Origin: Siderastrea radians | Lineage: Eukaryota > Cnidaria > Anthozoa > Scleractinia > Rhizangiidae | Length of the DNA stretch: 64,000 bases | Direction of reading: 5' to 3' | NCBI GenBank assembly: GCA_964017195.1 | Contig: OZ024896.1 | Span: forward strand, 35,829,307 to 35,893,306 | Shown here: positions 41,201 to 64,000 of the stretch, one piece after another | How the letters are laid out: the number at the start of each line of letters is the position of its first letter | Numbering within the stretch: the stretch's first letter is position 1 | Made by a program: the position numbers and the translations under genes | Notes under the pieces: model-generated | Database searches by the model: none | What the model was told of the DNA's origin: nothing | Seen by the model: the letters and a program-made list of their open reading frames with translations, nothing else

Positions 41201-42842
41201 GATCGATCACTGGGTAATCGAGACTTATAAGTTGATGGGCCACAAATATTAAGCCATCGTACAGGTAGAACACAGGTCTATTAAGTCCAAGCCTTTGTCT
41301 CCTCCATTGCTTTGGACAGAAAAAATAAATGCAAAGCAATAAAAAATCTCAGTCTTTGTAACGCTTGCTCAGTGTATTTCAGTCGAAGTATAGGAGTGTT
41401 AAAAAATATGTGTGACATTAAAGCGACCATACAGGGCGACAGGACCGTGATAGCTTTGCTCATGCTGTGAACTCTTTCCTGTACCTCCTTACGAACAACG
41501 GTATGATGTTCAAATTTATAACGAACGAGGCTTTTACGTATCATTCGATTTGACAGCCATCAAGTAACACATGAACTTTACAGTGTATTGTTTGTCGAGC
41601 CTGCCTCTTACAGCACAATGTCGTGCAAAAACAAGCTTGAAGAATATTACTTAGCAACAGGTTAAGAATTATTTATTGCTCATTTTTCTTATAATGTTTG
41701 TAGGTGAATACTGTATTTATAGGAAAGGTACGCAGTGTCCTACAGGTCTTTCATCGGGATATGTCTACTGGGATGACGATGACAACTGGAACTTGAATGA
41801 TGAATTTGGAACACTTCCTTCTGGCTTTTATGACCAAGATACGCGTATTGAGTTTTGCTGCAGAACGGACGGACAAAAAAATGCCCCCATCCTCCTTCCC
41901 TCTAAAACCGTATTCTTCCTGCTGGCTTATGGTTCAAGGAAATGTCAAATGGTGAAATGGACGATTGCGACTCTGGAATGGATCTATTATGATACGGAAG
42001 ACAACAGCAATGCAGACGATAGAGGAGGGGCGTATCCTTATAATGCTAGCAAAAAGCATCCTACCATCTACTACTGTTACTACCGCGGTGAGTGATCAAA
42101 TCTCCCTGGTACCTTCCGTCCGTCGGGTGGGGGCCTATGGCTTTTACTGAGGATTATATCTCGTTTACATAAAGTCACTTAGTAATTTCAGTTTATCTCA
42201 TCTGCACCGTAGATAGTTAGGTTGGTATGAGAGAAAGGTAGGGAATAAGACAAAAGGAAGTAAGGGTTTTACAATCAAGCTATTTATTTATCTTAATATT
42301 ATGTTCATATGTAGTAAGTTTAATTTCGACTGCTTTAGCGAATTTTGGTGTAATTTTTGTTGTTTTTTTAGCCTAGAATAGCCACCTCGTGGAAAGCTAA
42401 TAAACCATTATTAGAATTATCATAATTGTTGCTATTATTATTGCTATTATTATTATTATTATTGTTGTTATTATGAAGGTGTATTTTTTCGTTACTTCCG
42501 CTACTTCCTCGCTTTGACAAATGTTAACATGAGTTAACAGAAGGACAGTGGTTGACATGATGCCGTGAAAATAAAGAACGAGGAATTGTTCCTTTATGGT
42601 AGTAAAATACAAACGAAAACATTGGCAGGATGTACCAACTTAAACTATTTCAATCGAACGTTAGCTGACTAAAATTCTTAATGGTCAATGTCCATCTTAC
42701 TTATCCTCTCTCGTTCTTCTCATTGTTCACTCCTCAAAATACCCAATGTTTCGACAGCCGCTTATGGCCAGCGGGCTTTTTCTTTTTCTGCCCCGAAACT
42801 TTGGAAGTCTCTGTCCGAATCTTTAACTATGTCTTTAACTAT

Positions 42843-42880
<38 letters not shown>

Positions 42881-43033: not shown

Positions 43034-43066
<33 letters not shown>

Positions 43067-46000: not shown

Positions 46001-46699
46001 TACATTAAAAATAACCGATAATGACGCGATTTGGGAGTGGAAGTACTTCTTTCTGATCGCTTGGTGGCTAACACAGGGATGTTTACCAAGGAATTTCAGT
46101 ATTGCTAGGCAACAGAGGACCCCAGAACTGAGAACGTTTTACATCACTGTGGCTGTACAGACTTCAAATCGTACAACATAATAACCAACACCCCATGAAA
46201 AGTACTTGCTTCTGAAACCACTGCATTACACGGTTGGCTTCCTGGAAGAACTGTACATTTTTCACGACTTGATACGTCGCAGCCTCAGACCTTTATCTGA
46301 GTATGGGAAAGCGTTTCCGCAATGATCCATTGCGTTGTTTTCTGTTTTCTTATGAAATTTCTGTTTGACAGGTTTTAGTGTGGCAGCTGTTGTTGTTCCC
46401 GTAATGGCACTGGTTTTTGTAGTTGCCTTCCTGGTAGCTGTATTCTTCTATTGCAAAAGGTAAGATACGCTTGAGATAATCAAATCGATCGACCTTGAAG
46501 ATATAAGTGAAATATATTTTAGATTCTGAGACCTTTCAGGTGTTGTCAAGTACTGACTGTTAAGTAATCATTTCTCATGATCCTCGAACTCCTTTAAAAG
46601 ACCTTTAAAAGCAATTATCGCCCAGTCATCTCAAGCTCAAAGAATGATTGACCAATGTCTCGACCACTGGACACCAATCAACCCCGGTAGCCAGCCATC

Positions 46700-46732
<33 letters not shown>

Positions 46733-49259
46733 GGTCGGTTGGTCGGTCGGTCGGTCGGTCAGTCAGTCAGTCAGTCGGTGTGTGTGTCAGTCAATCAGTC
46801 AATCAGTCAGTCAGTCAGTCAGTCAGTTAGTCAGTCAGTCAGCAAGTCAATCAGTCAGTCAGTCAGTCAGTCAGTCAGCAAGCCGGTCAATCAGTCAGTC
46901 AGTCAGTCCGGCAGTCAATCAATCAATCAACCAATCAACAACTAAGTCAGCCAACCAACATCAGCCTGATACAGAGGTATTTGGGAAATTACTGAAAACC
47001 GAATTAAATAAATCTCTGTTCACCTACAGGAGACGGACAAAAGAAAAGGAGGAAGTGCCAAAACAAGTGGTTTATTCAAGGTAATTTAACTTTTCCGCTG
47101 GACTTATCAAAACCTTTCATTTAAGCTTTTTTTTATAGGCCTTAAGGCGCTATTATACCAAGGCAATTTTTCCTGCAACTGGCAACGCAACAGATGACGA
47201 GAGCATTGCGAGGCAAGTTGTAGAATGCATGTTACACGCTGGAACTCATCTCGCAACGTTGCAAAAAGTAGAAGCCTAGTCTACTTTTCCTGCAACTGGC
47301 AACGCAATTTTTCGTTGCAAGACATGTTGCAAAGAGGGGATGTTACACGTGCAATTCCGTCAAGTTGCAAAAAAAGGCCTCGTGTAACAGCGCCTTTACT
47401 GATATGTGCAATACCTTTTATGTGCGATTTATGACAGTGTGTTGCATGTATCCATTTGTTTGACAATAAATAATCCGTAAACTCGCGCGTGCGCTTTAGA
47501 GTTAAAAAGGCCAAAATAACTTTTAAAGGGGAGCAACATATTACTGATCCCATCGCTTCAGATAACTGATTTGATAGTTTTCACCGCCAGCTGCGGCAGG
47601 TAACCACTTATACAAGTTCGACTAATAAAACAAGATGTGCATGAAATTAGTGATAGTAAGACGCCATGACGTCGTAGTGTTTACCCATATTTTATTGATC
47701 TATTTTTAGGTCAAACGGCGAAACACCGATGTCACTTGAAAATCCGTACTATAATCGGTAAGCACTTTGCCCAATCAAATGCGAAAAAATGAAGAACTTT
47801 AAAGCAAAAGGACTTGTGTTAAATGGTGTAGTATTCAATAACCCGATTATGAAATATCTGTTTTGTTGAATTTAAGGGCAAGAGGTGAAACACCGATGTC
47901 AGTTGACAATTCTCTTTATGATAGGTAAGAAACAACAAATTAAGAAACTTTTATTAACTAGTGCACTACTAAGAGAAATGAATTGTCTAAATAGTGGCTA
48001 AATAGTGCAATCTGTGGCTTTTTTTCTTGGATACCTGTTATATAGTAGCAAGAATCGTTACATTTCTATGTTGGGCCTTTATTTCTAGAGGCCGTCGTAG
48101 AGGGTGTGGATGGGGGAACTACAATTTTAAGTTGTCACTTAAAATTTTGGCCATGAGCCTCAAAATATTGCCTGGTGGCCTCTTTTGTACCTGAAACAAA
48201 TTTTTGAATTCTTCTAATATTATCGAAGACTCCCGACGATTTCTCAAATGTTTTCCGAAACATGTACTACGTTTATTGAATGTCTTCGTCTGGATCTCCT
48301 CCGTAAACGTTCCGCTGTTCTCATGCGTGTTCTCATGCGTGTTAGAAGATGCGATTTGCAAGTAACCATTTTTTGTGTCTTTCATAGTGAACTGATTACA
48401 GAAAATACAGTGCATTCCTCAGAGGCAAACGACCTATACTCTGAGGTTAACGAATATGAAAACGGTAATACCAAAGAGATGTACATGCCAAAGGAAAATG
48501 AAAACCCATTGTACGAGACCGCAGGGGGTGACTCAGTGTTTAATCCCATCTACGACAGGTTTGTTATCAGATTGTAACTTCTGATTTTGTAAGTTAAATA
48601 TCTTACAGTGTGAGCAGTAAAGTGAAAGGCATATTGAGCAGTACTTTCTATGCTGTGGTTCTACCTCTTGAGGTTGTGAACAAATCCCCTAAAGTGTGAA
48701 CATTCAAATGAAAGCTACTGAGCAGTACTTTCCTGTGGTACTGTTTATTATGCTGTACAAAGTGATTCTAACTTTGAGTCTCTGGACGAAATCCTAAAGA
48801 AAGGATGAAAGGTATCGAGCAATGCTTTTTGTAGAGCTATTTATTATGTTGTATAAAGTGGTTCTGATTCAACTTTGACATGTTTGAGGCTTTAGTTATT
48901 GTGTAACGCTCTCTCGCGTGTGAACGCCCCTAGCGGCCAGGGGCGATGGGAGGCGGCTGTATTGCGATGCAAGGTAATACTAACCCCTACCCTTCAGGGT
49001 TATATTAGCAGTCGGGTAGGTGAGGCTTATAGTCCTTGGCCAGCAGCCCAGCGAATACCTCCTCCTTCCCCACCCTCCGTTCTCACTACAGAATACCCGC
49101 ATAAGTTGAGACCTGAATCTATACGATTCGGTCGTTCTTTTTAAGAGAAACTGAAAGCGAGCCTGAAATAACAAACTAATTGTGCTTAAAGATTATTTCC
49201 GCTTAGGCAATGTTTTACAGTATCAAACATATTTGTCTTTTTTTTGCAGCCCTACTTGA
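38146..49259 (+). CDS. ApeC-CUB transmembrane receptor with tyrosine tail, no kinase
   Basis: Predicted exons: 38146-38203, 40879-41121, 41704-42087, 43172-43522, 44047-44226, 46372-46459, 47030-47080, 47710-47757, 47877-47924, 48388-48558, 49250-49259. All have AG/GT borders and agreeing phases; the sum is 1,632 nt, or 543 residues plus stop. Order: signal peptide 1-19; ApeC 20-228; CUB 229-345; Ser/Thr/Lys-rich stalk 346-405; membrane helix about 408-432; cytoplasmic tail to 543 with nine tyrosines. Tail motifs include YSEV, YENG (Grb2-type YxN), YMPK, YETA and two ETPMS repeats. No kinase or other catalytic domain follows. Ectodomain exons match those of the minus-strand kinase gene in length and phase. 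I infer a cell-surface recognition receptor or co-receptor phosphorylated by a partner kinase. Exon choice is by eye; RNA evidence could add exons. Confidence 0.8.
39093..39110. repeat. G18 homopolymer
   Basis: Eighteen consecutive G in intron 1 of the plus-strand receptor, immediately before a truncated SINE. Length is likely variable or error-prone in assemblies. Confidence 0.9.
39111..39240 (+). repeat. 5'-truncated SINE body
   Basis: The block AACCCTGCGATGGACTAGC then ATCCCATCC...GTAGCAATACT...TTGCTTCATGCTAC matches, on the opposite strand, the body of the SINE at 52,765-53,006. The tRNA-like head is absent here. Confidence 0.6.
39902..40745. mobile_element. MULE-like element carrying a ZAD-like zinc-finger frame
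   Basis: Inverted ends TAGCCTGCGAGCAGGCTCTC and complement. The flanks repeat CATTTCATG (39,893-39,901 and 40,746-40,754), a 9-bp duplication as made by Mutator-like elements. About 120 bp at each end is inverted, with GCGAGCGAAGCGAGCC-rich sequence. It sits in intron 1 of the plus-strand receptor. The interior holds the minus-strand frame listed separately. Confidence 0.75.
40131..40448 (-). CDS. ZAD-like zinc-binding fragment inside MULE-like element
   Basis: A 105-residue frame. The core has HCRICSCSF near residue 33 and [12 protein letters not shown] near residue 85, a C-x2-C ... C-x2-C pattern spaced like the zinc-finger-associated (ZAD) type of dimerisation domain. No DNA-binding fingers follow. 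It may be the first exon of an element-encoded protein or a captured host exon. Identification rests on the cysteine pattern only. Confidence 0.4.
   Translation of the reverse strand: MWLFMEGSEERVLTPKKVVNKASGHCRICSCSFLVKYGTGKSGRMSTENLFEVSNRDGSRGQVLATMCENIGIYFVKLSSLSSRVCNSCARKIRNLCILIEPCAY
40879..41121 (+). CDS. Exon 2: ApeC domain, N-terminal half
   Basis: Acceptor TTTTCAG, donor GTCAGT, phase 1 at both ends. Encodes the ApeC opening motif [16 protein letters not shown], then [17 protein letters not shown] sequence, HLDG and FCIK, ending just before WPPG. These are the hallmark positions of the apextrin C-terminal domain. Confidence 0.8.
41704..42087 (+). CDS. Exon 3: ApeC domain, C-terminal half
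   Basis: 384 nt, phase 1 to phase 1. Carries [14 protein letters not shown], a DDDDNW turn, [39 protein letters not shown] and the closing YYCYYR. The paired cysteines and the FCCR and YCYY motifs are diagnostic for ApeC. Same length as the homologous kinase-gene exon at 62,497-62,880. Confidence 0.88.
42681..42895 (+). repeat. 3' remnant of a CR1/L2-type LINE with (ATC)n tail
   Basis: The translated stretch [20 protein letters not shown] matches the conserved C-terminal tail of jockey/CR1-type reverse transcriptases (RAFxxxAPxLWNSLP). The match runs into a (ATC)n microsatellite at 42,844-42,880. It lies in the intron between the ApeC and CUB exons. Confidence 0.7.
42954..43146. repeat. Compound tetranucleotide repeat
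   Basis: (ATCT)n, then (ATCC)n, then (CTGT)n with CTGC variants, then (TTCT)n leading into the polypyrimidine tract before the CUB exon. The open frame across it is low-complexity and not a gene. Confidence 0.9.
43172..43522 (+). CDS. Exon 4: CUB domain
   Basis: 351 nt, phase 1 to phase 1. Shows [61 protein letters not shown] and GFSALYS, the CUB core. Only the first cysteine pair is present. Residues that are Cys in the kinase paralog (GIC and SDC) are Tyr here (GIY and VDY). CUB domains bind proteins or glycans outside the cell. Confidence 0.88.
44047..44226 (+). CDS. Exon 5: Ser/Thr-rich stalk
   Basis: 60 codons, starting [15 protein letters not shown] and ending in a Lys/Gln-rich [12 protein letters not shown] segment. 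Suits an O-glycosylated stalk before the membrane. Phase 1 at both ends. Confidence 0.65.
44305..45524. mobile_element. TTAA-flanked DNA element (1.2 kb)
   Basis: Ends GGCCGCGGGTGA and TCACCCGCGGCC, both bounded by TTAA (44,301-44,304 and 45,525-45,528). Inside is AT-rich with only short frames. Target and terminal structure suit Kolobok/piggyBac-type elements, non-autonomous. Located in the intron between stalk and membrane exons. Confidence 0.65.
45742..45960. repeat. Palindromic tRNA-derived SINE pair
   Basis: The minus strand holds a tRNA-like unit with A box TAGCTCAGTTGGTAGAGC and T loop GGTTCGAATCC. The plus strand repeats its 3' half in mirror image: 45,806-45,849 is complementary to 45,883-45,926. 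The SINE flanks also mirror each other (GACCATCGCAGTTGAAATCG at 45,747-45,766, its complement near 45,935-45,954). The acceptor stem matches only 4 of 7 bp, so it is not a working tRNA. Confidence 0.7.
46372..46459 (+). CDS. Exon 6: transmembrane helix
   Basis: Acceptor TGACAG, donor GTAAGA, phase 1 to 2. Encodes a helix of Val, Ala, Phe and Leu ([20 protein letters not shown]) ending FFYCKR, a stop-transfer signal. Confidence 0.8.
46689..46955. repeat. Compound (CCAG)n / (CGGT)n / (CAGT)n repeat
   Basis: About 265 bp of tetranucleotide repeat in the intron after the membrane exon. All-frame open reading across it (Ser/Gln/Val-rich) is a repeat artefact. Confidence 0.9.
47030..47080 (+). CDS. 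Exon 7: juxtamembrane segment
   Basis: 51 nt, phase 2 to 2. Encodes a basic [18 protein letters not shown] stretch with one tyrosine. Confidence 0.65.
47145..47395. mobile_element. MITE (AGGCGCT ends), 251 bp
   Basis: Ends AGGCGCTATTATA and TGTAACAGCGCCT, flanked by TTA on both sides. The body has repeated TTGCAACTTG/CAAGTTGCAA-type words. The same family lies at 58,749-59,061 in the kinase receptor gene. Confidence 0.7.
47710..47757 (+). CDS. Exon 8: tyrosine mini-exon A
   Basis: 48 nt, phase 2 to 2, encoding [15 protein letters not shown] between split Arg codons. Strongly similar to the next exon: shared GETPMS and an acidic-Asn-x-x-Tyr end. The equal length and symmetric phase indicate exon duplication. 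Confidence 0.7.
47877..47924 (+). CDS. Exon 9: tyrosine mini-exon B
   Basis: 48 nt, phase 2 to 2, encoding [15 protein letters not shown] between split Arg codons. Duplicate of exon 8. Because the phase is symmetric, skipping either keeps the frame. Confidence 0.7.
48388..48558 (+). CDS. Exon 10: main tyrosine-motif tail
   Basis: 57 codons with five tyrosines, in [25 protein letters not shown] and NPIYD. These resemble docking sites for SH2 proteins; YENG fits the Grb2-type YxN rule. If the donor GTTTGT is not used, the frame reads on to TAA at 48,575-48,577 and adds FVIRL. Confidence 0.75.
49250..49259 (+). CDS. Exon 11: last codons and stop
   Basis: After a TTTTTTTTGCAG acceptor, the split codon plus CCT ACT TGA gives a C-terminus SPT. 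A short but plausible terminal exon; retention of the intron gives an alternative end at 48,577. Confidence 0.5.
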
Positions 49260-50224: not shown

Positions 50225-50290
50225 TTAGAACAGCAAATCTTCTAGATTCTCATAGAGTGCCGTGTCGTAATCTTGCATGTTGATGAGCCT
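50225..50290 (-). CDS. Kinase receptor exon 14: C-terminal tail
   Basis: 22 codons after a TTTTTAACAG acceptor, in phase with the last kinase exon. Encodes [20 protein letters not shown] and stop [13 protein letters not shown] has two tyrosines; YENL is a YxN docking motif like YENG in the plus-strand partner. Confidence 0.75.
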   Translation of the reverse strand, partial: RLINMQDYDTALYENLEDLLF

Positions 50291-53200
50291 CTGTTAAAAA
50301 GAAGAGCCGACTATTAAAAACCCGAACAACCCCCTTTTCTTGTACCTAGTAACCCCTCGGACATGCAAGGCGGGGAATGGATGTCACCCATCCCCTCCCT
50401 TAAGATTGTTCTTCTATTACTTCAAGAGGATTCATTTTGACAAGTGTGCGCATGTACCTCAGTCAATTTGGCAAAGTTTGGCGAGAATCACTTGCTATGG
50501 TGATATTTCCTTTACAGTGAAATGTGAAGACAAAGTGTTCAATTGTCATATCCTACATGACAAAAAAATGACATGACGGCATGAAAACGACATGAAGGCA
50601 TGAAAAATTTCAATCTCTACCCTTTTCTGACAATTCCGTAATATTGAATAAAATCCATCTTGTCCGTTGTTTGATGACGTCACAGTCCCCAGTTAGTGGT
50701 TTAAACCATGATATTTACTTGATCTTGTTCAGTGCACTACAAGTTTTCTACCAGCTATAACACGTTTTCAACAATTAGGGGGGAGGGGCGTCAACCCGAC
50801 CTTGTACCACGGGGGGAGGGGGGGGATGAGTTTGCTTATACGTCGGAGGGTTAAAGTAAGATAGTAAGGTGACATATTTTACGTGAAATATGTACAGGTT
50901 TACTGAGAAAAGCAGTATTTAAATTATTAACCAGAGTCTTTCTTTAAATTCGTAGTATATCCACCAAAGATCTATTGTAAAATGAAAATTTTAATTACTC
51001 TAGAGCTGGACTTCTGCAGAGGAATTAAGTTTGCCATGTTTACTAGTCGCTATGCTCTTTCCGTTTTCCAAGTTCGCAACAAATACACTCCTTTTAGTAA
51101 AAAGAAAATCGTATCGGTACTGAGTTTTCGTTTTACCTTGTGCTGTTTTTCCATTTCTTTTAATTCTATGGTAAGATTTTCAAATGTTGGACGGTCGCGA
51201 GGGTCTTCTTGCCAGCACATGCGCATGATCTTGTACCTGGGAAATAGAGTAGAACCTTTTTCACGACTGGCCATCTAGAATTAGTTGATTTAGGAAAAGG
51301 ATATATGACACGATCGTAAACTGAAAAACATTGGCGCAATATGATAAGGTAAACCTAAGCAAGCCATAAAGGCTGGTTTACATGTATATGCACGACGCAA
51401 GTGCAACGATAAGCAAAAGACACGTGTAAGCTGGGAGGAGACACAAGCCTAAAGGCCGTTTTACGTGTACGATGCGAGAATGAGGATAAGCAATAGGCAC
51501 GTACGTGTAAACCGGGGACGCAAGCGTAAGAAGAGTCATAAACACAAGCTCAAAAGAAAAGGAAATGTTTTTCTTTTGCGCTTGCGTCGTTGTGTCGCCC
51601 GTGTGAACAAGGATAACGGAAGCAACAGCAACTTGTCAAGCAACTTTTAACAAATTCATGGTATGTACTTTTACATACAAGTGTGTGACGTCATATCCTG
51701 GTCAAAATAAAGCGTGGATAACAAAAACGATTTAATCGGTGAGCACGAACTTTAACTTGGTTTACAATTTCATGTTTTTGGATTAGGAAATGACTAAATA
51801 TAATTATTTGGGCTATTAACAGGGGTTGAGGAAGGGGGAGGAGGGGAGGGGGGGAGGGAAGGGTAGTAAGACGGGGTTCTAACTGTAACTCCTGTTCCGA
51901 AAGGGAATAAACATTGTATATGATTAGACTCCTTTCCCCTTCTTTCTACAAAGGCCGCAGTAATTAACTTACAGGGGGTCGTCCACGTGTGTTGGTTTGG
52001 GCATCCTGTATCCCTGCTGAAGTAAATCCACGATTTTTCGGCCGTCCATTCTCGGGTAGGGTGAGCCACCTGCACACAGGTATCAAATGTGAGTGTCCCT
52101 GTTAGGTGTGTGTGGTTCGTTGCCAATGAGTGCCAAATCAACTGTCGAAGCTCACTTTGTAATGCTCATACAAAATTATTTATACTCGTTATTTTCAAAT
52201 CAAAGTGACATTTAAGAGATTTTTTGTTGATGTCCCAAATTCAAATAAGCTCCCAGAGCCCTTACGAAGTTACTACACGACAGTAACACTACCTACAGAA
52301 ATAAAAGAGAAATATGCAAATTTTCAAAGTCACAACAGCAATCGCAAAACACAGCATAAACAAGAAAAGGGCGGTCAAGAAACTAACATTTTCCGCTAAG
52401 GTAAGTATCAGTTCCAGAAAACTACTACCGAATTCACAGATGTATAGCATGCATCGTTATGCATCGATGGAGCAATAAGGCAACCCGATATGTCGTGCTA
52501 ACCATTTGTACCATACCTACAGTGAAGATCTCGTACAGTAAAACTCCGTAACTCCATCTGTGTGAAACGAAAGAAGATCGTGATGAGTTGAGTTGTGTAA
52601 ATACAATTTTTAATTGCACAGACTAACTGCTTATGTCTTTACCGCCAATAACATCACGGCTAAAAGGGTTAATATCACCTGTTTTAATTATTTTTTCAGC
52701 CAGAGACATGAAACCACCATCAACTGACGATAAGCTTACTATCGTAAAGTTTTAAAAGTGAAAAAAAGGTAAAGCTGCACACGATCCAAGGAGGCCCACA
52801 CGGTCGGAGCTTAACCCGGTTTCTGTGGCATGAAGCAACTGAGGGTATTGCTACTGCCCCCCTTGGTGGGATGCTACTTCGCCTGGGTGGAGAGAGACAA
52901 TGTGGAGGTAAGTTTCTTATCTCAGTAAGGACACAACACGATGGCAGGGACTGGACGTCGAGCCACCCACCTTCAGATTAGCCACTACACTGCCACGCCC
53001 CCACTAAGGTTAAAAGTAGCAATGCTCCAAACCCTGTGTCCCTCCCCCACCGAAAGTAATAACGACCACACGAATAACATGTATTTCTCTACGAAAAACG
53101 TTAACAGATACTCTGTACCAAACTACCAAATAAGACATGATAAGTGCGCGCGAGAGATCCGGTACATATCCGAAACAACCGCCTGCTCTACCGCTTCTTT

Positions 53201-56200
53201 TAAAAAGGCGCCACCTTTTAAAAAAAATTGTACGCCATGATTTCATGTTTACCACGATTTCACATAAATGAATTGCCCTATATACGTTAAGCGCTTTTGC
53301 TAACCGAAAGTAGCGAAACCCCGAAAGATACAACCCCGAAAGTAACGATAGAGAACGGACTGCGAAACTCAGTCAATGTCACAATCTTTCAACAGACTAC
53401 TGTATTACACATTAGACAGAGTACTGAGACCCATGGGTTCAAGTTATTTTTCTTATTTGACGTTTGACTCTTTACTCTCTGTTGGCCAGCGTTTGACGAA
53501 AAAAAAAAGATTTATCCGGTAGACTTCACAGCGGTCAAACGCACAAGGCTACGTCACTTCGGTCTTCAGAGCCTTGAAATCTGAATCAGTTACAACCCTT
53601 TTCAGTGTGACGTTATCATGATAATGAAAACGATGCAAAAAATGCGCTGACGAAGCAAATTTCACAAAACAACACTTGTGGATGGCAGAAGCGGCGTTAG
53701 GTTTTGCAGTGTGAAAATGAAAGATTCCACATTTGTTTGCATTTTACTTTGCAAAACAAGATGGGATCTGGCCATGCGTCGTACCTTTGAACGCCGTTAA
53801 TTGTCGACAGTCAAATTCTAGCCAACTGGAGGTTAAGGATAACCTATTCAGACCTTCTATTACAGGTTCGATGCTTGTTAGGTTACTATAAACAGGGTGC
53901 CCCACTCACACATCGCTCTTTGTAGTGTATAGTCCAAACAGAAGTCCTTCGTAGGCTGTCCACTTTACTGGGAGTCGTCCCTGAGGCATAAAAATATACG
54001 TGAAAGCACGTGAGTTCAAAAAGTCAGAACACGAATTTCGAAACTGTACCACAAACCTTCCTTTTCATTTCGTAGATGTTTTCCTGGTGTACATCTCTAG
54101 CCATGCCAAAATCAGTTACTTTACATCTCTCTTCCTCCCCAACCAAAACATTACGGGCGGCGAGATCGCGGTGAATGATCTACAAATGAGAACTTACTTT
54201 ATTATATTTACTATTATTACAATTATCTATATTGTAAACGTAAATAACGTATGCTGAACTGGGCATCTCAGTCTGAATATTGTCGACAAAATAAATAAAT
54301 AAATTATACTACAAATCACGAATCTTGAAACTATGGGCTTTCAATTTAAAATTCATCAAAACAACCAAAGCAAAAACATTAGAAACTGTTAAATGCCAAA
54401 CGAACTTACATTTCTTGAAGATAAATAACGCATTCCATCAGCAACCTGCCACGAAAACGTCATTAACTGCTGTGACGTCAGAGTTGTTTGTGGCTTAACA
54501 TCCGGGTCTTTGTAGTATGTGTCATATAATCTCCGGCTCTTTCTCAAGTAACCCAACAGATCACCATACGGGACATACTCAATAATTACAAGCAACGGCT
54601 CTAAAATGTTAAAATGAAGTTATAAATATCAAAAATGTTGTGAATAAATTAGTGGTCTTTGCAGTGGTGTACGTATCTTTCCGATTAAAAGCAATCGTAG
54701 AGAAAACTGCTTCTACAAGTTTCAAATCCACTCATCAGTTTGTTTGTCTCTTGTTTACTCATCGATGTCTTAAAGATGGAATGCGAGCCAGGATTTCGGA
54801 ATCAGTTAAGGTTGAAATTCTGAATCATAGCCTAAACTTGGGGAATTGCTTGAGTGCCAAGGTACTTCTAGAATATGAAATGTTGGACGTTGTCCACAAA
54901 GGTGTTCCCCAATCCCGGTCAAAAGTTTTCCACTTCGTCCGAATAGGTACTGACCCGGAAATGTACTATATTTTACGAGCGCGCGTTGAATATGAGCTGA
55001 GGCGGCGCGTACGCGTAGTGCCGAGTTGCCTATAATCACCTCATATCGAACAAGCGCGGGTGGAATAATTGTTTTGTTAAATTCTCAACCCCGGAAATTG
55101 TTGCTGATTTTTTTTTACCCTTTTCCTGGAAAAAAGTTTTCACCAGTGGTGAAAACTTTTGAACGTCGTTGCACTTGACATGAAATCCAATTGCCTTAAA
55201 AGGCAAAAAGAAGGGTTTTTCACTGATAACCTGTGTTCAGTGAACCAATGAAAAAGCTAGACATGCAATAACCGAGATTGAGCATTTGATTATTAAAGTG
55301 CACCTAACCCTAAAAATTTTTTCCCCGTCAAATAAATCCTGTTATCATTTGGAGCATTTCGTCACAAAAAGTTTTTGATTTGGTTTAATCCCTGATTTTC
55401 TGTGCGCGGTTGAAGTACGGAAAATCGGCCGAAAATAGACACCATTTTGGTTCAGGGTCGAGCAGTGAGGGCATGGGACTAGTCACCTTGTGACGTCAAA
55501 TCAAGAACCCGCAGTCTCGCGCTCTCTCTATCGGAGCTATATTTCCCTTGAGCTCTCGAAGATGTACAGAAAACTGTCGACCGTTCGTATTGCTCCGAGA
55601 CACAGTAACCAAAGAAACGAATCACAAGACGTATCACTACAAAAATACAGCATTTTTTGACGACGACCGACCAGAGGCGAAGGGACGAAATGAGTGGATT
55701 TTGTAAAGCAATAGCGAGCAAAGCGGCAGCCTTCCAAGCACTCGATACTACGCTCGATGCATTTTAAGCAAAGATTTGTTGTCGCAGAAGAAGGTATGAA
55801 TGAGTGAACAACTTTAGTATCCGATCAAACGACAGCTTTTTGTGTATTTCCAATGATTCAACGACCGATTAACCACAGAATACCTGCGATACGCGGTACG
55901 CAGAAAATTATTACCTTTGCGAATTATTCAAGTTGGCTACACGGTAAGCGCTAAATAATTACATGTAAGCGGTGCCCAAAACAGCGAAGGGTTTAAAATT
56001 AAAGACCGTATTTATAGAAAGTCCTCCTTCAGCAGAACCGAACACGCTTTCTCCACAATAACAAGCCATTGCCGTTATTCCTTATTCTAGTCTATGAACG
56101 TGCCTCGCTATGAGTATTTTATCTTGAGTCATATCAAATCACTCGAGCATAACAAAACATTACTGTGCAGAGATCTCTTGTTCATATCCTCCGTTGAAGT

Positions 56201-59200
56201 AGAGGACAAGCAGTCTCTTTCTTAATTCTTTTATTACCATTTTTTGTGCGAAAAAAGGCCGCAAGAAGATCGAAGTGTGAGCGATGAGCGGCGAAGCCTC
56301 GAGTCGCGAGCTAAGCGAGGGCCGGTTGATTTACATAATTTGTACATTTCCGCTCGCGCTGGGATCTGAGGAAACTGCTTATACGTTGACGCGAGAAAAA
56401 TGATTGGTAAGATAATCTCAGTTGAACCGATACTAACGAACTCTCCTGCTTATAATTCTCGTCAAAGTCCTTTAGAAAATAATTGCCTTCCTGGTTCACT
56501 AGTGTTATAAATTGTTGTTATTGTTAATGCTGGTTACAGAAATGGACAAGACGTAAGTAATATCGCAGTTTCCACATTTACTTCTATGTAAAATAAATAA
56601 ATGAAGAAAGGAATGCTTTATTAAAATCTCAATTTCTATAAGAGGTTCCCTCAGCTTGAATTTAAATCTCAAATGCGAGAGGCGGAGAGCAGAAAAACCA
56701 AGACCAAACGTGAAGACCGAACGTGCGAAATAAAATGTAAACACTCACTGGCGAAGCTCAGCATTCCGGTTTCTTTGCGGTCCTCCAAGGCCAATCGTAT
56801 GTTGCTTTATTTGCTGTTCCAGTTCTTAGTTTGCCTTTATTCCCTTTTTGCATTGAGCAATTCATTCTTCGTTGGTTAGCGGCTTTTTAGCAGATATGGG
56901 CAGGACGGCACTATCTTCATCCTTTGGCGGTGTACTGTCGACTTCGTGTTCCGCATCTATCTCGTATTCAGAGCTAAAACTCATCTACAAATCAGCAGAA
57001 TCTGCGTAGCTCGTCTAAGTATCTGCTTTGGATTACAACATTGGAATTTTAGTCATACTATGACTTTGCTCGAATTAGCTAGAAGGTCAGAAGGCTTCGA
57101 TGAACAAATAAAGTCAGAGAAACACAGCTAAAAATTAAGCGGCGTGGAATTCTTGGTTCTTGATCTGACGTCACAACTACGGCTCGCCCAAGGTTCCTCT
57201 TACTCGGACGTGAACCAAATTTTTCTTGAATTTAACAGGGCACAGAAAATCGAGAATTTAACCAAATCAAAAAATTTTTGCGAAGAAATGTTCCAGATGA
57301 TAACAGAACTTATTTAGCTGAAAAGAAATTTTAGGGGTTAGGTGCACTTTAAAGATAGAGTGATTTTCGTTTGACCTTGAAATAATTACGCGCGAACAAA
57401 ACCAAAACAACGAACGAACAAGAAAATGGCAATTAGTTTAGCAAACATCAAGCACTTTTTAGAGCTTTGACATCAATCTGTATTCAGCAACACGACTGAA
57501 CAAACAAACATTGCTTTGTCCATATTAGGGTTTCTTTTAGCGGGAAACGAACGAGGTCCTGTTTTGATCTTTTTAACTAGTGGCAGATGAAACAAATAAC
57601 GAACACTTCACGGAAAACGTTTCTCAAGGTCAAACGAAAATCGCTCCATTTGTGATGTCACTTACCAGATTCAGTAACACACCCCAGCAGTTTGATGACG
57701 TGTGGATGAGGTTTAAGCTTCTTCATAACTTCAAGTTCTGACAACAAGTCTTTCCTGTCTGTTTCAGGAGCGTTATCTAGGATCAGAACAGGGAACACGA
57801 TTTATTCTAATACAAGGAATGGAGAGTACCACAACAGAATAGGTGTCAGTAAAGAAAATGATCTATAAAAAGCAAACAAGTGGAGGATTAACTTTCCGTA
57901 AAAATATAGGAAATTGTAATCAACGGTGCAATAAACGATAAAAATGGCCCATTGCACTGTTTGTGGGAGTTGATGAGCGGAGGCGGAAGCAATGTGTTTT
58001 CTGATCATGCTGATCGTAAATGTTAACCGGCTTCGTTTTAGGCTTGCAAAGGAAGATATTTCAGTTTTCCTCGTGCGAATTTTCATTCACCGAATTTTTA
58101 TTCACCGTTCGGGTTTCTCAAAGATGGTTCTTATATAAATTTGCGTTTGCTTTGGTTTAATTAAACCCTTGGCTTCTTCTGAAACGTGGCCTTCAAATGG
58201 ACAGGAAAACCCCATATCAAAAAGAGATTTACTTGTCATCCTGAATTAGAGATGAGTGTATTTGACCTTCAAATGAGAAACGACTAATTACCTTTCAGCA
58301 TTTTGATGGCCACAGTAGCTGTTTTTTCGCCTCCTCTAAGCTCAAAAGATTTTCCTTGTACAACTTGTCCAAAAGCTCCCTTTCCAATAATCTTATCAAT
58401 GATCACCTTTTCTCTTGGCACTTCCCAGGATCTTGTTCCTGGGGGGAAGGGGGTATATTCGTGTACTTCTGTGTCAGGTGACGTTTCTGTCACAGTTGTT
58501 TCCTCTAACTGCCCTGGGGACTGAGTAGCTTCAATTAAATCCATATAATGTCCAGGATTGTCACAGCAACCAGTGTCCGTATAGTCGTCATTAGTTTCAC
58601 GCAGCTCGGTCTGCCATGTGAGAAAAAGGGCCAGTTTCATTCCCTTAAAGGCTCTCGTCTGAAGTCTTTACGCGAACTCTTTGTCAAAATTGATTATTTT
58701 TGGTAATTAGACCGTATAGTTAACCACCCGAGTTATGCATAAACTTAAAGGCGCTGTTACATTAGGCAATTTTTTTTGCATCTTGTCTCGCAATTTTGTT
58801 GCGGTACAAGTTGCAGGAAAAATTGCCCAGTGTAACATACCCTGAATTGAACATGTCTCGCAACGTTTTTGTTGCCGCAATCGTTGCGAGAAGTAGAAGT
58901 CGGTTCTACTTTCCGTAACGATCCTCGCAACGCTGCAACGAATTCTCCCAGCGTTGCGCAGAGGTGTTACATTAGGCAACGTTGCCTGCAACTTGTCTCC
59001 CAACGGCGCAACAAAATTGCTGAACAAGTTGCAAGAAAAATTGCCTTGTGTAACAGCGCCTTTAAGTTACAAGTCAGATTTATACTTGGCAGAATTCATT
59101 GCTGTTTTTGAACCTGAAATTTTCCAACACAATTTGCCGGCTTGGCGCTGGAATTGCGGTGACGTGCTTCGCAATTATTGATTTCGGTAGAATTAACATT

Positions 59201-62200
59201 TCAAATCACAGCAGGCAAATGACCTTTCGAACACCCGGTCTGCACAAAGCCTGAAATTGGCTAATATCATTAATTTGTTTTCATTTGGTGAAATACAACG
59301 TCATTAGCAGCACAAAGTTTGTACCCTTCACATGTGCTGCACTATACCCGCTTACGGTGCTTGACAAGTACTTATACGAACATGGCTTTTTTTTTTTTAA
59401 TTTAGTACAACCAATAACCAGCAAACGCCACACAAACACTATCTCCGCGGTGTGGCCAGAACCCAGCCAGAATCTTATGCATGCGCACCGTCAAATTACA
59501 CGTGGAGTGCAAGCCATGGACAGCCGCTTCATCCTTCTAGGACTCATCAGCATGGCATAGCCCCAAAATTGCACTGAATTGGGAACTGACCGCCACCTGC
59601 CTGTACGCAATTTCCACGAGTACCCGTGGACTTTGCAAAAGCATGAATCTTAACGAAAACAGTAATTGAGGTAAACATTTTCCACGTTTTTAAAGACGCT
59701 CGAGTTGGGAAAATCTGCTGAAATGTAAGGTAGTTTTATACTGACCACTTGATCGGGCGCAGGTGTTTCGCACTGTCTGCAAGAAAATAGAATCTTTAAG
59801 ATTTATTGGCCAATGAAAGTGAGCAATGAGGAAGTAAGAAGAAAGGCAAACGAAGAGCTCATCAGCACACAAGTGAAAAGGAGACGGTGGCAGTGGATCG
59901 CTCACGTTTTACGAATAGAGAAAGAAGCTATTCCACGCACCGTCATCACGTGGGCACCAGAAGGCAAGAGAAAGAGAGGGAGACCCAGGAAGACTGGAGA
60001 CGAACTGTTGATAAAGAACTAAAGGAGTTAGGACTGGGGTCCTGGAGAAGGATGATTTCCTGCCCTGTTCACCGCCCGGCCACGGGGAGAAGGAACTGAT
60101 CACGAATGTGCAATTTCAAATATAATGCTTTGAGTAAACATGCAGTTTCAATCATTTCCTCAAAATAGTCGCTAAAAACATTTAACTGATGAATGATTTT
60201 GTGAAAGAGTCCAAACAGTGTGAGAAACTACATGCATTAATGCAGCAAAAAGAAAAAAATATGAACAAGCATACACTTAACTAATGAAGACGACACTATT
60301 TATTTTACAGTCCTTACTAAAGCTTACCTGTTATCTCTTTGACCTAAGAAACAAAAAAAGAATCGAAAAATGAGAACTAAGGATATCTGCGATCTTCTTC
60401 TTTACATTTAAGGATATCTTATTTGATTAATGTAAATCATGGGCTTAAGCCTAGTTCTAGCGTGCCTGGAGCACTTATTTCCGAAATGCATGTATCTCGG
60501 AACTTGGGTACTTCACATCACACAGAGTTATTTGCCATCCATTTCCATATGATTTCATGTTTGACAAAATTGTTTCCCCTTATATGAAGATTATGGCTAG
60601 GGGACACTTTGTGATGTCTATCATAAGGGACACGCATCTCATTAGCGAGCATTTCTGGGCATATGGCCTGGAAACTTCTGCTATTCATTTCCTGCTAATA
60701 ACCTTGTTCAAGCCAGGAGTGCGCGCTGACTCTAAACAGAATGCAGGTATTCTGTAACAATTTGGTATGGTATGTTTTTGATGTTCCCATGGAGCCATTT
60801 TTCGTCACGCATGTTTTTCGAAATTTTAGTTTTTTTTTCTTTATATATAAAGTGCAATTAAGTTATTTTACTTACGTTTCCGAAGCCTCCACACTGTGCA
60901 AATTAAGAACACAGTTAAAACGACGAACAGAACTCCAACTATCGGTCCATATATGAAAGCCTTGTTTAACTCTGTCGCTTCTTTGTCTGATAACCTGCCA
61001 GTTGATGTTAGTGCCGGTTCCTTGCTTGATGCTCTCTTTTCCACAGCAGGCAAAGTTCCGGGCTTGACGGTCGAAGGCGACGTCACTTCCAGTGTATGTA
61101 CAGCTGAAGTGGCAGCAGTTGGCGCTGTTTTGGAGAAACACCAGGAAGATTAAAATACGAGGTTTCAGTTATCTATCAATCGGTTGTAAAATTCAATCAG
61201 ATGTAAAAACAAAATAACCGAAGTCTTATCAAACTGATAAAAGGCCTACCTAGCTGCAATTGAGGAACTCCCACAAGAATTCACTTTTATCACCACAGAC
61301 CCGCGCCAGGACCAGCGATGTTTGAGCGGTTGGTCTATTTCATAACAGTGGAGTTAGAAGCTGTGCTGTAAAATCTTTTTTTTTTTTTTTTCGTTTCGGT
61401 TGTAAAACCAAAAATAATCTTTCTAAGGCGATGTCTAGGGAATTGCATAGTAATAAAACTATATATAATACAACATGAACACATAAATCCTCAAACACTG
61501 GGAAACGGCGGGAAATTTCCTCCACCTTTTACTCAAAAGTGTTCCTATTTCCAGTGCAGACAAGCTATCAACTAATCGCTAGATTGTTCAACATTTAAAC
61601 GCTCCTTTTAACACTTACCTACGCAATCAGATTCGGAGTAGGAAGCACTGAAGCCGCCGTAGGAGCCATTCTTGTCAGATTTGAATATTACCAACATGTG
61701 GTTTGATGAAGAGCAGATTCCTTCCTTGGGGGGAGGCTGACCTCCGTAAAACACTCCCAACACCTCCCCTGTGGTATTCTGTCCTTCGTATACGTATAAA
61801 CCGTCCGTGTTATTCTCGCTTTGCAAACTGAAGTTTGTGAACATTAAGTGAATTAGTTGCGCTGGGCCGACCGTGATCCTCCAGGAACAGTACTGTCCAT
61901 CCGGGTACTTTCTTGGATAGTTTGGTGAGTGGAAAGTGCCGTTGACTCCCGTTAGAGTTTCATTGCATCCTAAAAAAAGAAAGAAAGAAAGAAAGAAAGA
62001 AGCTGCTAATTGAAAAGCAGATTCATCTCATCAGTTCCGATAGAAATTAAGTTAGAAAAAAGCAAATACTCAATCCCCACCGTCCTTTCCATCCCGATCT
62101 TTGTTCGAACGGCTACAGATTCAGCCTAAGATTACGCCCCGACTGATGACACCCATTCACGCAGCCATTTCTCGAAATATACCTCCATCTTACTCTGTCG

Positions 62201-62880
62201 GGTGATAAGCTGTTTGGTTTTATAAGGATCAGCGCTGTTACTGCTTGAGTCAAGCAGAAAGTAACAGTTTAAAATTTGTGTTCAAGGAAACTGGGTTTTA
62301 CTAGTACCTGAGATGTTTAACCCTTTGCATACCAACTACGCATATATGCGTAGTTATATACAGGACCCCTTTTAAAAGTCTGTTTCGCAAATTTCTTTAC
62401 GATGGAAATTAAGAATATTTGCAGAGTGTGCCTGGAGATAGGCAAGCATGCATGCCTGGCTATATCCAGGACTTGCACAATTTTCGGTTTACCCACCGCG
62501 GTAGTAGCAGTAGTAAATTGTAGGGTGCTTAATCCCAGCCTCAAAAGGATACGCTCCTCCTGCCTTATCTGAGTTGCGGTTAGCTTCCGTATCAAAAAAT
62601 ATCCACTCCAGACTTGCCACCGTCCACTTGACCATTTGACACTCCGCTGAACCGTATGCCAGCAGGAAAAATGGAGTTTGTGAGGGAAGTAAAATAGGGT
62701 CACTTTTACTTCCGTTTGTTCTACAGCAAAATCGAATCTCTGTGTTGTAGTCATATCTACCACCAGGAAGTGTTCCTCCTTTGGCATTAAAGCCGTACTT
62801 ATCGTCGTCATCATCCCATTTGACATTACCTTTTGTCAGTCCCTCAGGGCACCCTCCACTATTATAAATACAGTATTGTC
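50225..62880 (-). CDS. ApeC-CUB receptor tyrosine kinase (5' end outside window)
   Basis: Exons on the minus strand: 62880-62497, 61969-61619, 61124-60876, 60343-60328, 59776-59746, 58610-58292, 57776-57666, 54600-54410, 54179-54057, 53980-53910, 52557-52517, 52069-51973, 51236-51137, 50290-50225. All have AG/GT borders and consistent phases, giving 715 visible residues plus stop. Order: second half of ApeC, CUB, stalk, membrane helix, juxtamembrane, full tyrosine kinase, short tail. Kinase hallmarks: [16 protein letters not shown], Glu in [22 protein letters not shown], activation-loop Tyr in [36 protein letters not shown] and GRLPVKW mark a receptor-type tyrosine kinase, closest by eye to FGFR/RET-like kinases. 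Signal peptide and first ApeC exon should lie beyond 64,000. Likely role: ligand-activated phosphotyrosine signalling, with ApeC/CUB sensing glycans or microbes (inference). Confidence 0.88.
50291..51136 (-). other. Last intron with G-rich tracts
   Basis: Intron of the kinase gene. On the plus strand 50,779-50,827 has several G runs capable of forming a G-quadruplex; on the transcribed strand they read as C runs. If the donor at 51,136 is not used, translation continues to a TAG at 51,050-51,052, giving an alternative C-terminus without the docking motif. Confidence 0.4.
51137..51236 (-). CDS. Kinase receptor exon 13: end of kinase C-lobe
   Basis: Encodes [20 protein letters not shown] and a Glu/Lys-rich helix. 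The CW...DPRDRPTF block closes tyrosine kinase domains (subdomain XI) with the conserved Arg. Confidence 0.88.
51360..51640. repeat. Possible MITE fragment
   Basis: Contains two related GGC(T/C)G(G/T)TTTAC(A/G)TGTA starts and ACGCAAG(T/C)G words, and ends in CGTGTGAAC. It looks like a decayed palindromic MITE but ends are not clear. Confidence 0.3.
51835..51875. repeat. Purine (G/A) tract
   Basis: Near-pure GGGAGGAGGGG-type tract in the kinase-gene intron between exons 12 and 13. In the transcript it is a C/U-rich tract and might influence splicing. Confidence 0.6.
51973..52069 (-). CDS. Kinase receptor exon 12: C-lobe
   Basis: Encodes [20 protein letters not shown], then [18 protein letters not shown] and the LLxxGYRMPKP block are standard for receptor tyrosine kinases (subdomain X). 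Phase 1 to 2. Confidence 0.88.
52517..52557 (-). CDS. Kinase receptor exon 11: short C-lobe exon
   Basis: 41 nt encoding [13 protein letters not shown], joining KSDV to GGSPYP. Phases 2 in, 1 out, matching both neighbours. Confidence 0.85.
52765..53006 (-). repeat. tRNA-derived SINE in kinase-gene intron
   Basis: On the minus strand, GCGTGGCAGTGTAGTGGCTA and GGTGGCTCGACGTCC form a tRNA-like head near 53,006-52,940. A body with AGCATCCCACC...GTAGCAATACC...TTGCTTCATGCCAC follows, also present at 39,111-39,240. The element lies in sense orientation in the intron before exon 11. Confidence 0.6.
53910..53980 (-). CDS. Kinase receptor exon 10: P+1 loop and AYE motif
   Basis: Encodes [20 protein letters not shown] then KSDV. 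The position that is normally APE in the activation segment reads AYE (Tyr codon at 53,951-53,953). GRLPVKW and TTKSDV are intact. Phase 0 to 2. Confidence 0.88.
54057..54179 (-). CDS. Kinase receptor exon 9: catalytic and activation loops
   Basis: 41 codons, phase 0 to 0: [14 protein letters not shown], then [20 protein letters not shown] and KRK. Catalytic Asp in HRD, Asn in AARN and the DFG metal-binding Asp are all present. One activation-loop tyrosine (NIYEM; codon 54,072-54,074). Confidence 0.92.
54410..54600 (-). CDS. Kinase receptor exon 8: hinge, kinase insert, helix E
   Basis: Encodes [20 protein letters not shown] (gatekeeper and hinge), a short insert with YDTYYKDPD, and helix E ending [14 protein letters not shown]. 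The short insert with tyrosines resembles FGFR-type kinases. Phase 1 to 0. Confidence 0.9.
55297..57348. mobile_element. TTAA-flanked DNA element in kinase-gene intron (2.05 kb)
   Basis: Ends AGTGCACCTAACCCTAAAA and the near-identical complement, with about 110 bp of inverted similarity. Flanked by TTAA on both sides (55,293-55,296 and 57,349-57,352). The interior has only short frames and CG-containing motifs. Kolobok-like by target and end, non-autonomous. Confidence 0.75.
57359..57650. mobile_element. MITE with GAG(T/C)GATTTTCG ends
   Basis: Inverted ends GAGTGATTTTCGTTTGACCT and GAGCGATTTTCGTTTGACCT face each other about 290 bp apart. No certain target duplication. It directly follows the TTAA-flanked element and precedes kinase exon 7. 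Confidence 0.6.
57666..57776 (-). CDS. Kinase receptor exon 7: helix C region
   Basis: Encodes [20 protein letters not shown] then [17 protein letters not shown]. The Glu of SELEVM is the helix C residue that pairs with the VAIK lysine. Phase 1 to 1. Confidence 0.9.
58292..58610 (-). CDS. Kinase receptor exon 6: juxtamembrane and glycine loop
   Basis: 106 codons. The juxtamembrane part has [15 protein letters not shown] and HEYTPF tyrosines. Then [20 protein letters not shown] leads into QVVQGK, and VAIKMLK supplies the ATP-binding lysine (codon 58,302-58,304). The acceptor is phase 0 and the donor GTAATT phase 1. Confidence 0.9.
58749..59061. mobile_element. MITE (AGGCGCTGTTACA ends), 313 bp
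   Basis: Ends AGGCGCTGTTACA and complement, flanked by TTAA (58,745-58,748 and 59,062-59,065). Inside are repeated GTTGCAGG/TTGCAACG words. Same family as 47,145-47,395. Confidence 0.7.
59746..59776 (-). CDS. Kinase receptor exon 5: 31-nt microexon
   Basis: Acceptor TTTTCTTGCAG, weak donor GTCAGT, phase 2 to 0. Encodes [10 protein letters not shown], sharing ETP with the tyrosine mini-exons of the plus-strand gene. Needed to change phase between the 16-nt microexon and the phase 0 kinase exon. Confidence 0.6.
59780..60105 (+). repeat. LINE reverse transcriptase C-terminal remnant
   Basis: Translation shows [47 protein letters not shown] and, after a frameshift near 60,000, [13 protein letters not shown]. 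This is the conserved tail of non-LTR reverse transcriptases (RWxWIGHVLRM...TWxPxGKRxRGRPxxTWRR). Antisense to the kinase gene, abutting its 31-nt microexon. Confidence 0.8.
60328..60343 (-). CDS. Kinase receptor exon 4: 16-nt microexon
   Basis: GTCAAAGAGATAACAG between TTTGTTTCTTAG and GTAAGC, phase 1 to 2, encoding RQRDN after the membrane helix. Required for the frame between exons 3 and 5. Confidence 0.6.
60876..61124 (-). CDS. Kinase receptor exon 3: stalk and transmembrane helix
   Basis: 83 codons: a Ser/Thr/Pro-rich stalk ([12 protein letters not shown] and following) then the helix [20 protein letters not shown] and basic RLRKR. Phase 1 to 1. The plus-strand partner splits stalk and helix into two exons. 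Confidence 0.88.
61619..61969 (-). CDS. Kinase receptor exon 2: CUB domain
   Basis: 351 nt, identical in length and phase to the plus-strand CUB exon. [53 protein letters not shown] and GFSASYS are near-identical between the genes. Here the domain also has Cys in GICSSS and in the last codons (SDC), absent in the partner. Confidence 0.92.
61976..62001. repeat. (GAAA)n repeat forming the CUB exon polypyrimidine tract
   Basis: On the sense strand of the kinase gene it reads (TTTC)n directly before TTTTTTTAG. A related TTCTTTCTTT stretch sits before the plus-strand CUB exon, so it probably predates the duplication. Confidence 0.7.
62497..62880 (-). CDS. Kinase receptor exon 1 (visible): ApeC C-terminal half
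   Basis: 384 nt, phase 1 to 1, after acceptor TTCCAACAG. Shows [69 protein letters not shown] and YYCYYR. All ApeC cysteines of this half are present. It must be preceded by an ApeC N-terminal exon not found up to 64,000. Confidence 0.9.
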
Positions 62881-62986
62881 CTGTTGGAATAGATATTTCT
62901 GAGTTATTGCAAACTTTGTGACTTGTAACTTGTTTATGTGTTTAATGAATTTTAATTCTAATTTTTATGCCTGATTGTAAGTTTTA

Positions 62987-63746: not shown

Positions 63747-63749
63747 TTA

Positions 63750-64000
63750 CCCCTCTCCACCTTATTCTTAATCTGTTCTGTTCCGTTCTATGCTTTGCTG
63801 TGCTATGCTTCTCTCTGATTCTCAACATATTAACCTGCGTACACTGACTAACAAAGAAATTATACAATATGTCAAACCTACGCGAGCAGTAAATGCAAAT
63901 AAGGTATCCTTGATGATTAAGACGCCATTAGGAAGCAATGTTTCCCGGACAGGACAGGACTGGACTGAAATCGTGGATTTTGCACTTCAATATTTTCGTT
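63750..64000. other. Window edge, no feature
   Basis: AT-rich noncoding sequence, presumably intron of the kinase receptor gene. No ApeC N-terminal exon is visible on the minus strand. Confidence 0.5.

What the first reader, a model, noticed from the sequence alone, without database searches (positions are those of the whole stretch)
50225..62880. Receptor tyrosine kinase with an ApeC plus CUB ectodomain
Seen: one consistent set of 14 phased exons links an ApeC half-domain, CUB, stalk, membrane helix and a kinase with every catalytic motif. Known: ApeC is best described in apextrin-like proteins, where amphioxus members bind peptidoglycan; CUB is an extracellular ligand-binding domain. I do not know of a characterised ApeC receptor kinase. 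Inference: this could link recognition of microbes or glycans directly to tyrosine phosphorylation, for example in symbiosis or immunity.
Basis: partly seen in the sequence, partly recalled or inferred. Interest (0 to 1): 0.92.

Follow-up and report, generated by a model that had tools for sequence, protein, structure and literature searches.

The report
Coral ApeC-CUB receptor tyrosine kinase
A stony-coral gene appears to join the outer part of a putative microbe- or sugar-binding receptor to the inner part of a growth-factor-receptor-like tyrosine kinase; its transcript, ligand and function are untested.

Summary
On the minus strand, 14 GT-AG exons with agreeing phases (62880-50225) encode 715 residues without a stop: the second half of an ApeC domain, a CUB, a stalk, one membrane helix and a tyrosine kinase with its main catalytic motifs. 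The first ApeC half was not found in 62881-64000.

A kinase-less sister gene (A, + strand, 40879-48577) encodes ApeC-CUB-stalk-helix-tyrosine-rich tail. And exon 3 of the kinase gene (B) is composite: its 5' part is homologous to gene A's stalk exon, its 3' part matches the membrane segment of coral receptor kinases. One 249-nt exon bridges both halves, which makes two separate genes unlikely.

No listed relative carries both ApeC and kinase (0 of 120 listed of 353; 0 of 36; 0 of 70). Five coral ApeC-CUB proteins carry the kinase-type membrane segment without a kinase, so the fusion may be old.

Microbial sensing is inference; no transcript was seen and the genome tool did not complete. Verdict: a real new variant of a known kind, receptor-kinase ectodomain shuffling.

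The parts
62497..62880 (-). gene B exon 1: second half of ApeC
   Evidence: Pfam ApeC 1.1e-41, profile 79-208 of 208; phases 1/1
61619..61969 (-). gene B exon 2: CUB domain
   Evidence: Pfam CUB 6.6e-24; phases 1/1
60876..61124 (-). gene B exon 3: composite exon, ApeC-CUB receptor stalk followed by receptor-kinase-type membrane helix
   Evidence: blastn to gene A stalk exon 64% over 154 nt, E 4e-14; RTK helix profile E 1e-13
60328..60343 (-). gene B exon 4: 16-nt micro-exon
   Evidence: acceptor 13.3, donor 9.6, top candidate of the scan
59746..59776 (-). gene B exon 5: 31-nt micro-exon, uncertain
   Evidence: acceptor 10.5, donor 5.5; restores frame
58292..58610 (-). gene B exon 6: juxtamembrane part (HYMDL) and kinase glycine loop, VAIK
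57666..57776 (-). gene B exon 7: kinase, helix C region
54410..54600 (-). gene B exon 8: kinase, hinge and insert
54057..54179 (-). gene B exon 9: [11 protein letters not shown], activation loop
53910..53980 (-). gene B exon 10: kinase, KWTAYEG
52517..52557 (-). gene B exon 11: kinase
   Evidence: residues align to P0009
51973..52069 (-). gene B exon 12: kinase
51137..51236 (-). gene B exon 13: kinase C-terminal part
50225..50290 (-). gene B exon 14: C-terminal tail and stop
40879..41121 (+). gene A exon: first half of ApeC
41704..42087 (+). gene A exon: second half of ApeC
   Evidence: full ApeC 4.6e-77
43172..43522 (+). gene A exon: CUB domain
   Evidence: CUB 1.3e-25
44047..44226 (+). gene A exon: stalk, homologous to the 5' part of gene B exon 3
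46372..46459 (+). gene A exon: membrane helix of another type (VVVPVM)
   Evidence: no match to the RTK helix profile (E 0.15-0.37)
47030..48577 (+). gene A cytoplasmic tail, four exons (47030-47080, 47710-47757, 47877-47924, 48388-48577) with tyrosine motifs (NPYYNR, LYSEV, NPLYET, NPIYDR) and stop

Best explanation
Gene B encodes one single-pass receptor tyrosine kinase whose outer part is that of a coral ApeC-CUB receptor and whose helix, juxtamembrane part and kinase belong to a coral clade of FGFR/RET-like receptor kinases. The join lies inside exon 3. How it most likely works: an extracellular polymer or multivalent surface (for ApeC, by analogy, peptidoglycan or another glycan) clusters receptors through ApeC and CUB; the kinase domains phosphorylate each other and nearby tyrosines; SH2/PTB proteins dock. 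The kinase-less sister A has a tail rich in tyrosine motifs but no enzyme and would need a partner kinase; B carries the kinase itself. Shown here: gene structure, homologies, composite exon, catalytic motifs. Inferred, with my estimates: expression as one mRNA 0.85, active kinase 0.8, microbial or glycan ligand 0.35, phosphorylation of A-type tails by B or its relatives 0.2.
For: 14 in-phase GT-AG exons, 715 codons without a stop. ApeC, CUB and kinase all far above Pfam cut-offs. Exon 3: 64% nucleotide identity with gene A's stalk exon over 154 nt, E 4e-14; stalk profile 18.4 bits with 0 of 20000 shuffles reaching it, 12 receptor-kinase stalks at most 5.5; 3' part matches the receptor-kinase helix profile at E 1e-13 while gene A does not (0.15-0.37). 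No Met between residues 239 and 366, so no membrane kinase can start within exons 3-5. Five ApeC-CUB proteins of other sources have the kinase-type helix after CUB; Ig/SEA receptor kinases have helix and kinase joined as here. Kinase domain inside a 13-member clade with support 1.0 among 98. dN/dS about 0.29 (ApeC half) and 0.24 (CUB) against gene A, NG86. Peptidoglycan binding by ApeC in other animals: passages.
Against: No transcript. No listed protein in three searches has both domains, so no orthologue confirms the whole chain; the five relatives with the same helix lack a kinase. Upstream exons unseen. Micro-exon 5 uncertain. The stalk test is weaker without bias correction: 22.5 bits, 2 of 20000 shuffles reach it, Ser/Thr-rich control windows up to 16.6. 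Intron 2 holds a 49-codon ATG frame (61484) whose most hydrophobic stretch (2.09) is like three real signal peptides (2.07-2.44), so another start is not strictly excluded. No evidence on the ligand; the ApeC half gave no usable fold.
Confidence: 0.75

Rival explanations
1. Mostly a membrane-anchored decoy or co-receptor locus: the main transcript ends just after the helix (ApeC-CUB-helix without kinase), and the kinase is made rarely.
For: Reading through the exon 3 donor gives ...LRKRK and a stop; P0122 of Pocillopora verrucosa, named isoform X2, ends in ...KHKRK right after the same kind of helix. P0125, P0140, P0141 and P0142 also have the helix without a kinase.
Against: The kinase exons are intact, in frame and keep the catalytic motifs, which is unexpected if they were not used. 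Both forms may be made.
Confidence: 0.12
2. Two genes side by side: an ApeC-CUB gene ending after exon 2 or 3, and a kinase gene with its own promoter.
For: No known protein has both parts. Exon 2 read through its donor stops after two codons (sequence), and intron 2 has an ATG frame with a hydrophobic stretch.
Against: Exon 3 carries stalk and helix of the two parents in one exon; intron 2 is only 494 nt; no Met between residues 239 and 366; splice sites and phases fit at both joins.
Confidence: 0.08
3. Assembly artefact or a recent pseudogene that joins unrelated pieces.
For: Repeats and a LINE-like stretch lie in the introns; the species is unknown and read support cannot be seen.
Against: The join lies within an exon whose two parts keep frame, with good splice sites on both sides; no stops in 715 codons; dN well below dS against gene A in the ApeC-CUB exons. 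The kinase part could not be tested for dN/dS (no DNA of relatives).
Confidence: 0.05

Closest known systems
Coral Ig/SEA FGFR/RET-like receptor kinases (such as P0005, P0009, P0010 of Oculina patagonica, P0014 and P0016 of Pocillopora verrucosa, unnamed P0012)
   Same: Kinase 77-82% identical for the nearest nine, same helix-juxtamembrane-kinase order and C-terminal tail
   Different: Their ectodomains, where covered, have Ig and/or SEA domains; B has ApeC-CUB in the exons seen
Coral ApeC-CUB receptors with tyrosine-rich tail (gene A; P0123 unnamed, P0004 Oculina patagonica, P0018 Stylophora pistillata)
   Same: ApeC, CUB and stalk
   Different: Helix of another type and a tail without kinase
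ApeC-CUB proteins with kinase-type helix but no kinase (P0122 Pocillopora verrucosa, P0125 Montipora capricornis, P0141/P0142 Acropora palmata, P0140 unnamed)
   Same: ApeC-CUB followed by a helix 56-59% identical to B's in four of them; P0122 matches the helix profile at about 1e-10
   Different: No kinase domain; tail homology to B only suggestive
P0062 Acropora muricata CUB-Ig-kinase
   Same: CUB on a coral FGFR-like kinase
   Different: No ApeC; its CUB is only 25% identical to B's
Amphioxus ACP1/2/3/5 and mollusc short-form ApeC proteins
   Same: ApeC; ACP5 also has a CUB (passages of PMC8361754)
   Different: Secreted, signal peptide plus C-terminal ApeC (passages); no helix or kinase mentioned in the passages seen

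Membership tests
Receptor tyrosine kinase | Tyrosine kinase domain with catalytic motifs | tested here: met
   PK_Tyr_Ser-Thr 9.9e-93; motifs; best solved relatives by sequence include RET and FGFR
Receptor tyrosine kinase | Single membrane helix between ectodomain and kinase | tested here: met
   Helix from residue 302; matches receptor-kinase helix profile
Receptor tyrosine kinase | Signal peptide | tested here: inconclusive
   Upstream exons not identified; ApeC first half not found in 62881-64000
Receptor tyrosine kinase | Ligand-driven kinase activity | not testable with these tools
   needs biochemistry
Coral Ig/SEA FGFR/RET-like receptor kinase clade | Kinase domain inside the clade | tested here: met
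   13-member clade, support 1.0, in a tree of 98
Coral Ig/SEA FGFR/RET-like receptor kinase clade | Ig and/or SEA ectodomain | tested here: not met
   Pfam finds only ApeC and CUB in the exons seen; more upstream exons are possible
ApeC-containing protein | ApeC domain | tested here: met
   1.1e-41, second half only
ApeC-containing protein | Eight conserved cysteines (passage) | tested here: inconclusive
   Six cysteines in the half seen, residues 3, 10, 51, 52, 80, 124; the first half is not in the window
Coral ApeC-CUB receptor with tyrosine-rich tail | ApeC-CUB-stalk | tested here: met
Coral ApeC-CUB receptor with tyrosine-rich tail | Helix of the VVVPV type and tyrosine-rich tail without kinase | tested here: not met
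   B has the receptor-kinase-type helix and a kinase
Peptidoglycan-recognition receptor | Binds bacterial cell wall | not testable with these tools
   analogy only (passages)

The most novel reading that the evidence does not exclude
A pattern-recognition receptor tyrosine kinase: corals wired a microbe- or glycan-binding ApeC-CUB ectodomain straight to a tyrosine kinase, so that recognition needs no separate kinase, as the tyrosine-tailed sister receptors would. The fusion predates the split of several reef-coral genera, which now keep kinase-less remnants or isoforms as decoys.
Probability: 0.22. Interest if true: 0.85.

Novelty: new variant of a known kind. Interest (0 to 1): 0.62.

Why it matters
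Exchange of ectodomains on receptor kinases is known (passages of PMC8662651), but ApeC is a microbe-binding domain in the animals where it was tested. A kinase fused to it gives a concrete candidate for how a coral could turn contact with bacteria, algae or another surface into tyrosine phosphorylation. The fusion also predicts, in the Rosetta-stone sense, that kinase-less ApeC-CUB receptors with tyrosine motifs work together with this kinase clade. Both are testable.

Tried and rejected
Two-gene reading: put low because of the composite exon 3. A fusion private to this species: weakened by five ApeC-CUB proteins of other sources with the kinase-type helix. That their tails are remnants of B's juxtamembrane exon is only suggestive: in pairwise tests P0140 scores 49 (4 of 3000 shuffles reach it), P0141 and P0142 39 (38 and 57 of 3000), P0125 18 (2222 of 3000); the tail of P0004, a receptor of the other helix type, scores 52 (8 of 3000), which counts against specificity. 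With a profile of P0140-P0142 tails B scores 10.4 bits; none of the 8974 shuffles reported (of 10000 made) reaches it; best of 87 receptor kinases reported (of 103 tested) 4.7. The receptor-kinase profile running into the kinase gives nothing for these tails (P0142 0.0 bits, 942 of 2000 shuffles as good; P0140 not reported). Trees of the ectodomain put B with P0140/P0125/P0141/P0142 for ApeC alone and ApeC-CUB (support 0.28 and 0.31) but with gene A and P0123 for CUB alone (0.37): no conclusion. The ApeC half modelled poorly (mean pLDDT 60.1); Foldseek found nothing at E 0.001 or below: no conclusion. The alignment run on the longer P0123 model was filled by CUB chains. No solved structure matched the ApeC part by sequence in the 55 matches; the convincing ones cover CUB. 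Scans of viral and prokaryote contigs for the ApeC exon gave no relative. One search looked at candidates up to about 1818 residues so that a longer fused relative would not be missed. Literature: nine searches (two returned nothing) listed no paper whose title or shown abstract start describes an ApeC kinase; I saw passages of four papers and listings of the rest, so this does not prove absence. Rows left out before counts: P0139 was dropped from the stalk profile for its long insert; the helix profile used 13 of 111 motif-bearing kinases and the ApeC-CUB profile 11 sequences (gene A included), those that fitted a text pattern.

Full report
What is there. The window comes from a stony coral, judged by its relatives: the named hits are all Porites, Oculina, Desmophyllum, Acropora, Stylophora, Pocillopora or Montipora. 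The species is not identified. Rebuilding the minus-strand gene (gene B) gave 14 exons, 62880 down to 50225, GT-AG introns, consistent phases, 715 residues and a stop. Pfam finds the second half of ApeC, a CUB and a tyrosine kinase. The kinase has [18 protein letters not shown] and DFG and ends in a tail shared with other coral receptor kinases.

On the plus strand, 40879-48577, nine in-phase exons encode a kinase-less sister, gene A: full ApeC (4.6e-77), CUB (1.3e-25), stalk, helix and a tail with LYSEV, EMYMPK, NPLYET and NPIYDR. The two genes face each other tail to tail. Their second ApeC exons are 66% and their CUB exons 80% identical in protein; dN 0.27 against dS 0.94, and 0.11 against 0.47 (NG86; YN00 gives 0.30/0.70 and 0.12/0.38). 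The lower dS of the CUB exon could reflect gene conversion (inference).

The composite exon. Gene B exon 3 (249 nt) aligns with gene A's stalk exon at 64% over 154 nt (nt 10-163), E 4e-14, and the similarity stops about where the helix begins. The stalk peptide scores 18.4 bits against a profile of ApeC-CUB receptor stalks; 0 of 20000 shuffles reach that, 12 receptor-kinase stalks score at most 5.5 and 80 Ser/Thr-rich windows at most 5.8. Without bias correction it is 22.5 bits, 2 of 20000 shuffles reach it, and the best Ser/Thr-rich window has 16.6. The helix part of exon 3 matches a profile of 13 coral receptor kinases (E 1e-13 for a nominal 1000 sequences; gene A 0.15-0.37). So one uninterrupted exon holds both parents. 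No Met lies between residues 239 and 366, so a membrane kinase cannot start within exons 3-5; an unseen first exon in intron 2 is not strictly excluded, since a 49-codon ATG frame there has a hydrophobic stretch like that of real signal peptides.

Relatives. Three searches of 5.8 billion proteins listed no protein with both ApeC and kinase: 0 of the 120 listed of 353 (8 with ApeC, the other 112 with a kinase), 0 of 36, 0 of 70. A fused relative would have outscored the listed rows, so the 233 unlisted ones matter little (inference). By sequence motif, 47 ApeC-like and 111 kinase proteins among the 204 fetched do not overlap. Five ApeC-CUB proteins, however, carry the kinase-type helix: P0140 (unnamed), P0125 (Montipora capricornis), P0141 and P0142 (Acropora palmata), P0122 (Pocillopora verrucosa, named isoform X2). 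In a short BLAST, B's helix is closest to P0140 (59% over 32 residues), P0125 (57% over 30) and P0141/P0142 (56% over 32), then to the nearest receptor kinases (42-51% over 37-43). P0122 ends right after the helix in ...KHKRK; reading through B's exon 3 donor ends in ...LRKRK, as if both genes could make a kinase-less membrane form. P0129, P0149, P0160 and P0165 match the helix profile more weakly, and I make nothing of that.

Origin of the kinase. In a tree of 98 kinase domains B lies in a 13-member clade (support 1.0) with Oculina, Pocillopora, Acropora and unnamed proteins; identity is 77-82% to the nearest nine. Where their ectodomains are covered, those relatives carry Ig and/or SEA domains. 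A CUB-Ig-kinase exists in Acropora muricata (P0062), but its CUB is only 25% identical to B's, so ectodomain exchange on coral receptor kinases has probably happened more than once (inference).

How it would work. Recognition by ApeC-CUB, clustering, trans-phosphorylation and docking at tyrosines such as 353, 365, 395, 702 and 707 is the ordinary scheme of receptor kinases (established knowledge). ApeC of secreted amphioxus and mollusc proteins binds peptidoglycan (passages). Whether this coral ectodomain does is unknown. B has two ectodomain cysteines, 213 and 243, where gene A has tyrosine (alignment); a disulfide-linked dimer is possible but speculative.

Verdict. The biological role is open. 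Receptor kinases with shuffled ectodomains are a known kind; this combination was not found in the collections searched.

Noticed in passing
12403-15888 and 23577-26387, + strand; pieces at 31437-31766 and 35721-36071: Two long single-frame genes of TPR repeats plus a CHAT (caspase-like) domain (CHAT 1.2e-52 and 2.1e-57). The piece at 35721-36071 has TPR repeats; the one at 31437-31766 has no Pfam match but starts like the second gene. A small TPR-CHAT cluster beside the receptors.
   Followed up: partly
40879-48577, + strand: Kinase-less ApeC-CUB receptor (gene A) with a tyrosine-rich tail, facing the kinase gene tail to tail.
   Followed up: yes
59753-60099, + strand: Two overlapping frames that I take, from memory, for a LINE fragment (Pfam found nothing); micro-exon 5 of gene B overlaps it on the other strand, so that exon might be derived from a transposon.
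   Followed up: partly
43172-43522 against 61619-61969: The CUB exons of A and B are much closer (dS 0.47) than the neighbouring ApeC exons (dS 0.94); gene conversion is possible.
   Followed up: no
60860-60880, - strand: Reading through the exon 3 donor ends the protein in LRKRK after the helix, much like the end of P0122 (KHKRK): a possible kinase-less isoform.
   Followed up: partly
53910-53980, - strand: The usual APE motif of kinases reads AYE here and in relative P0009; effect unknown.
   Followed up: no
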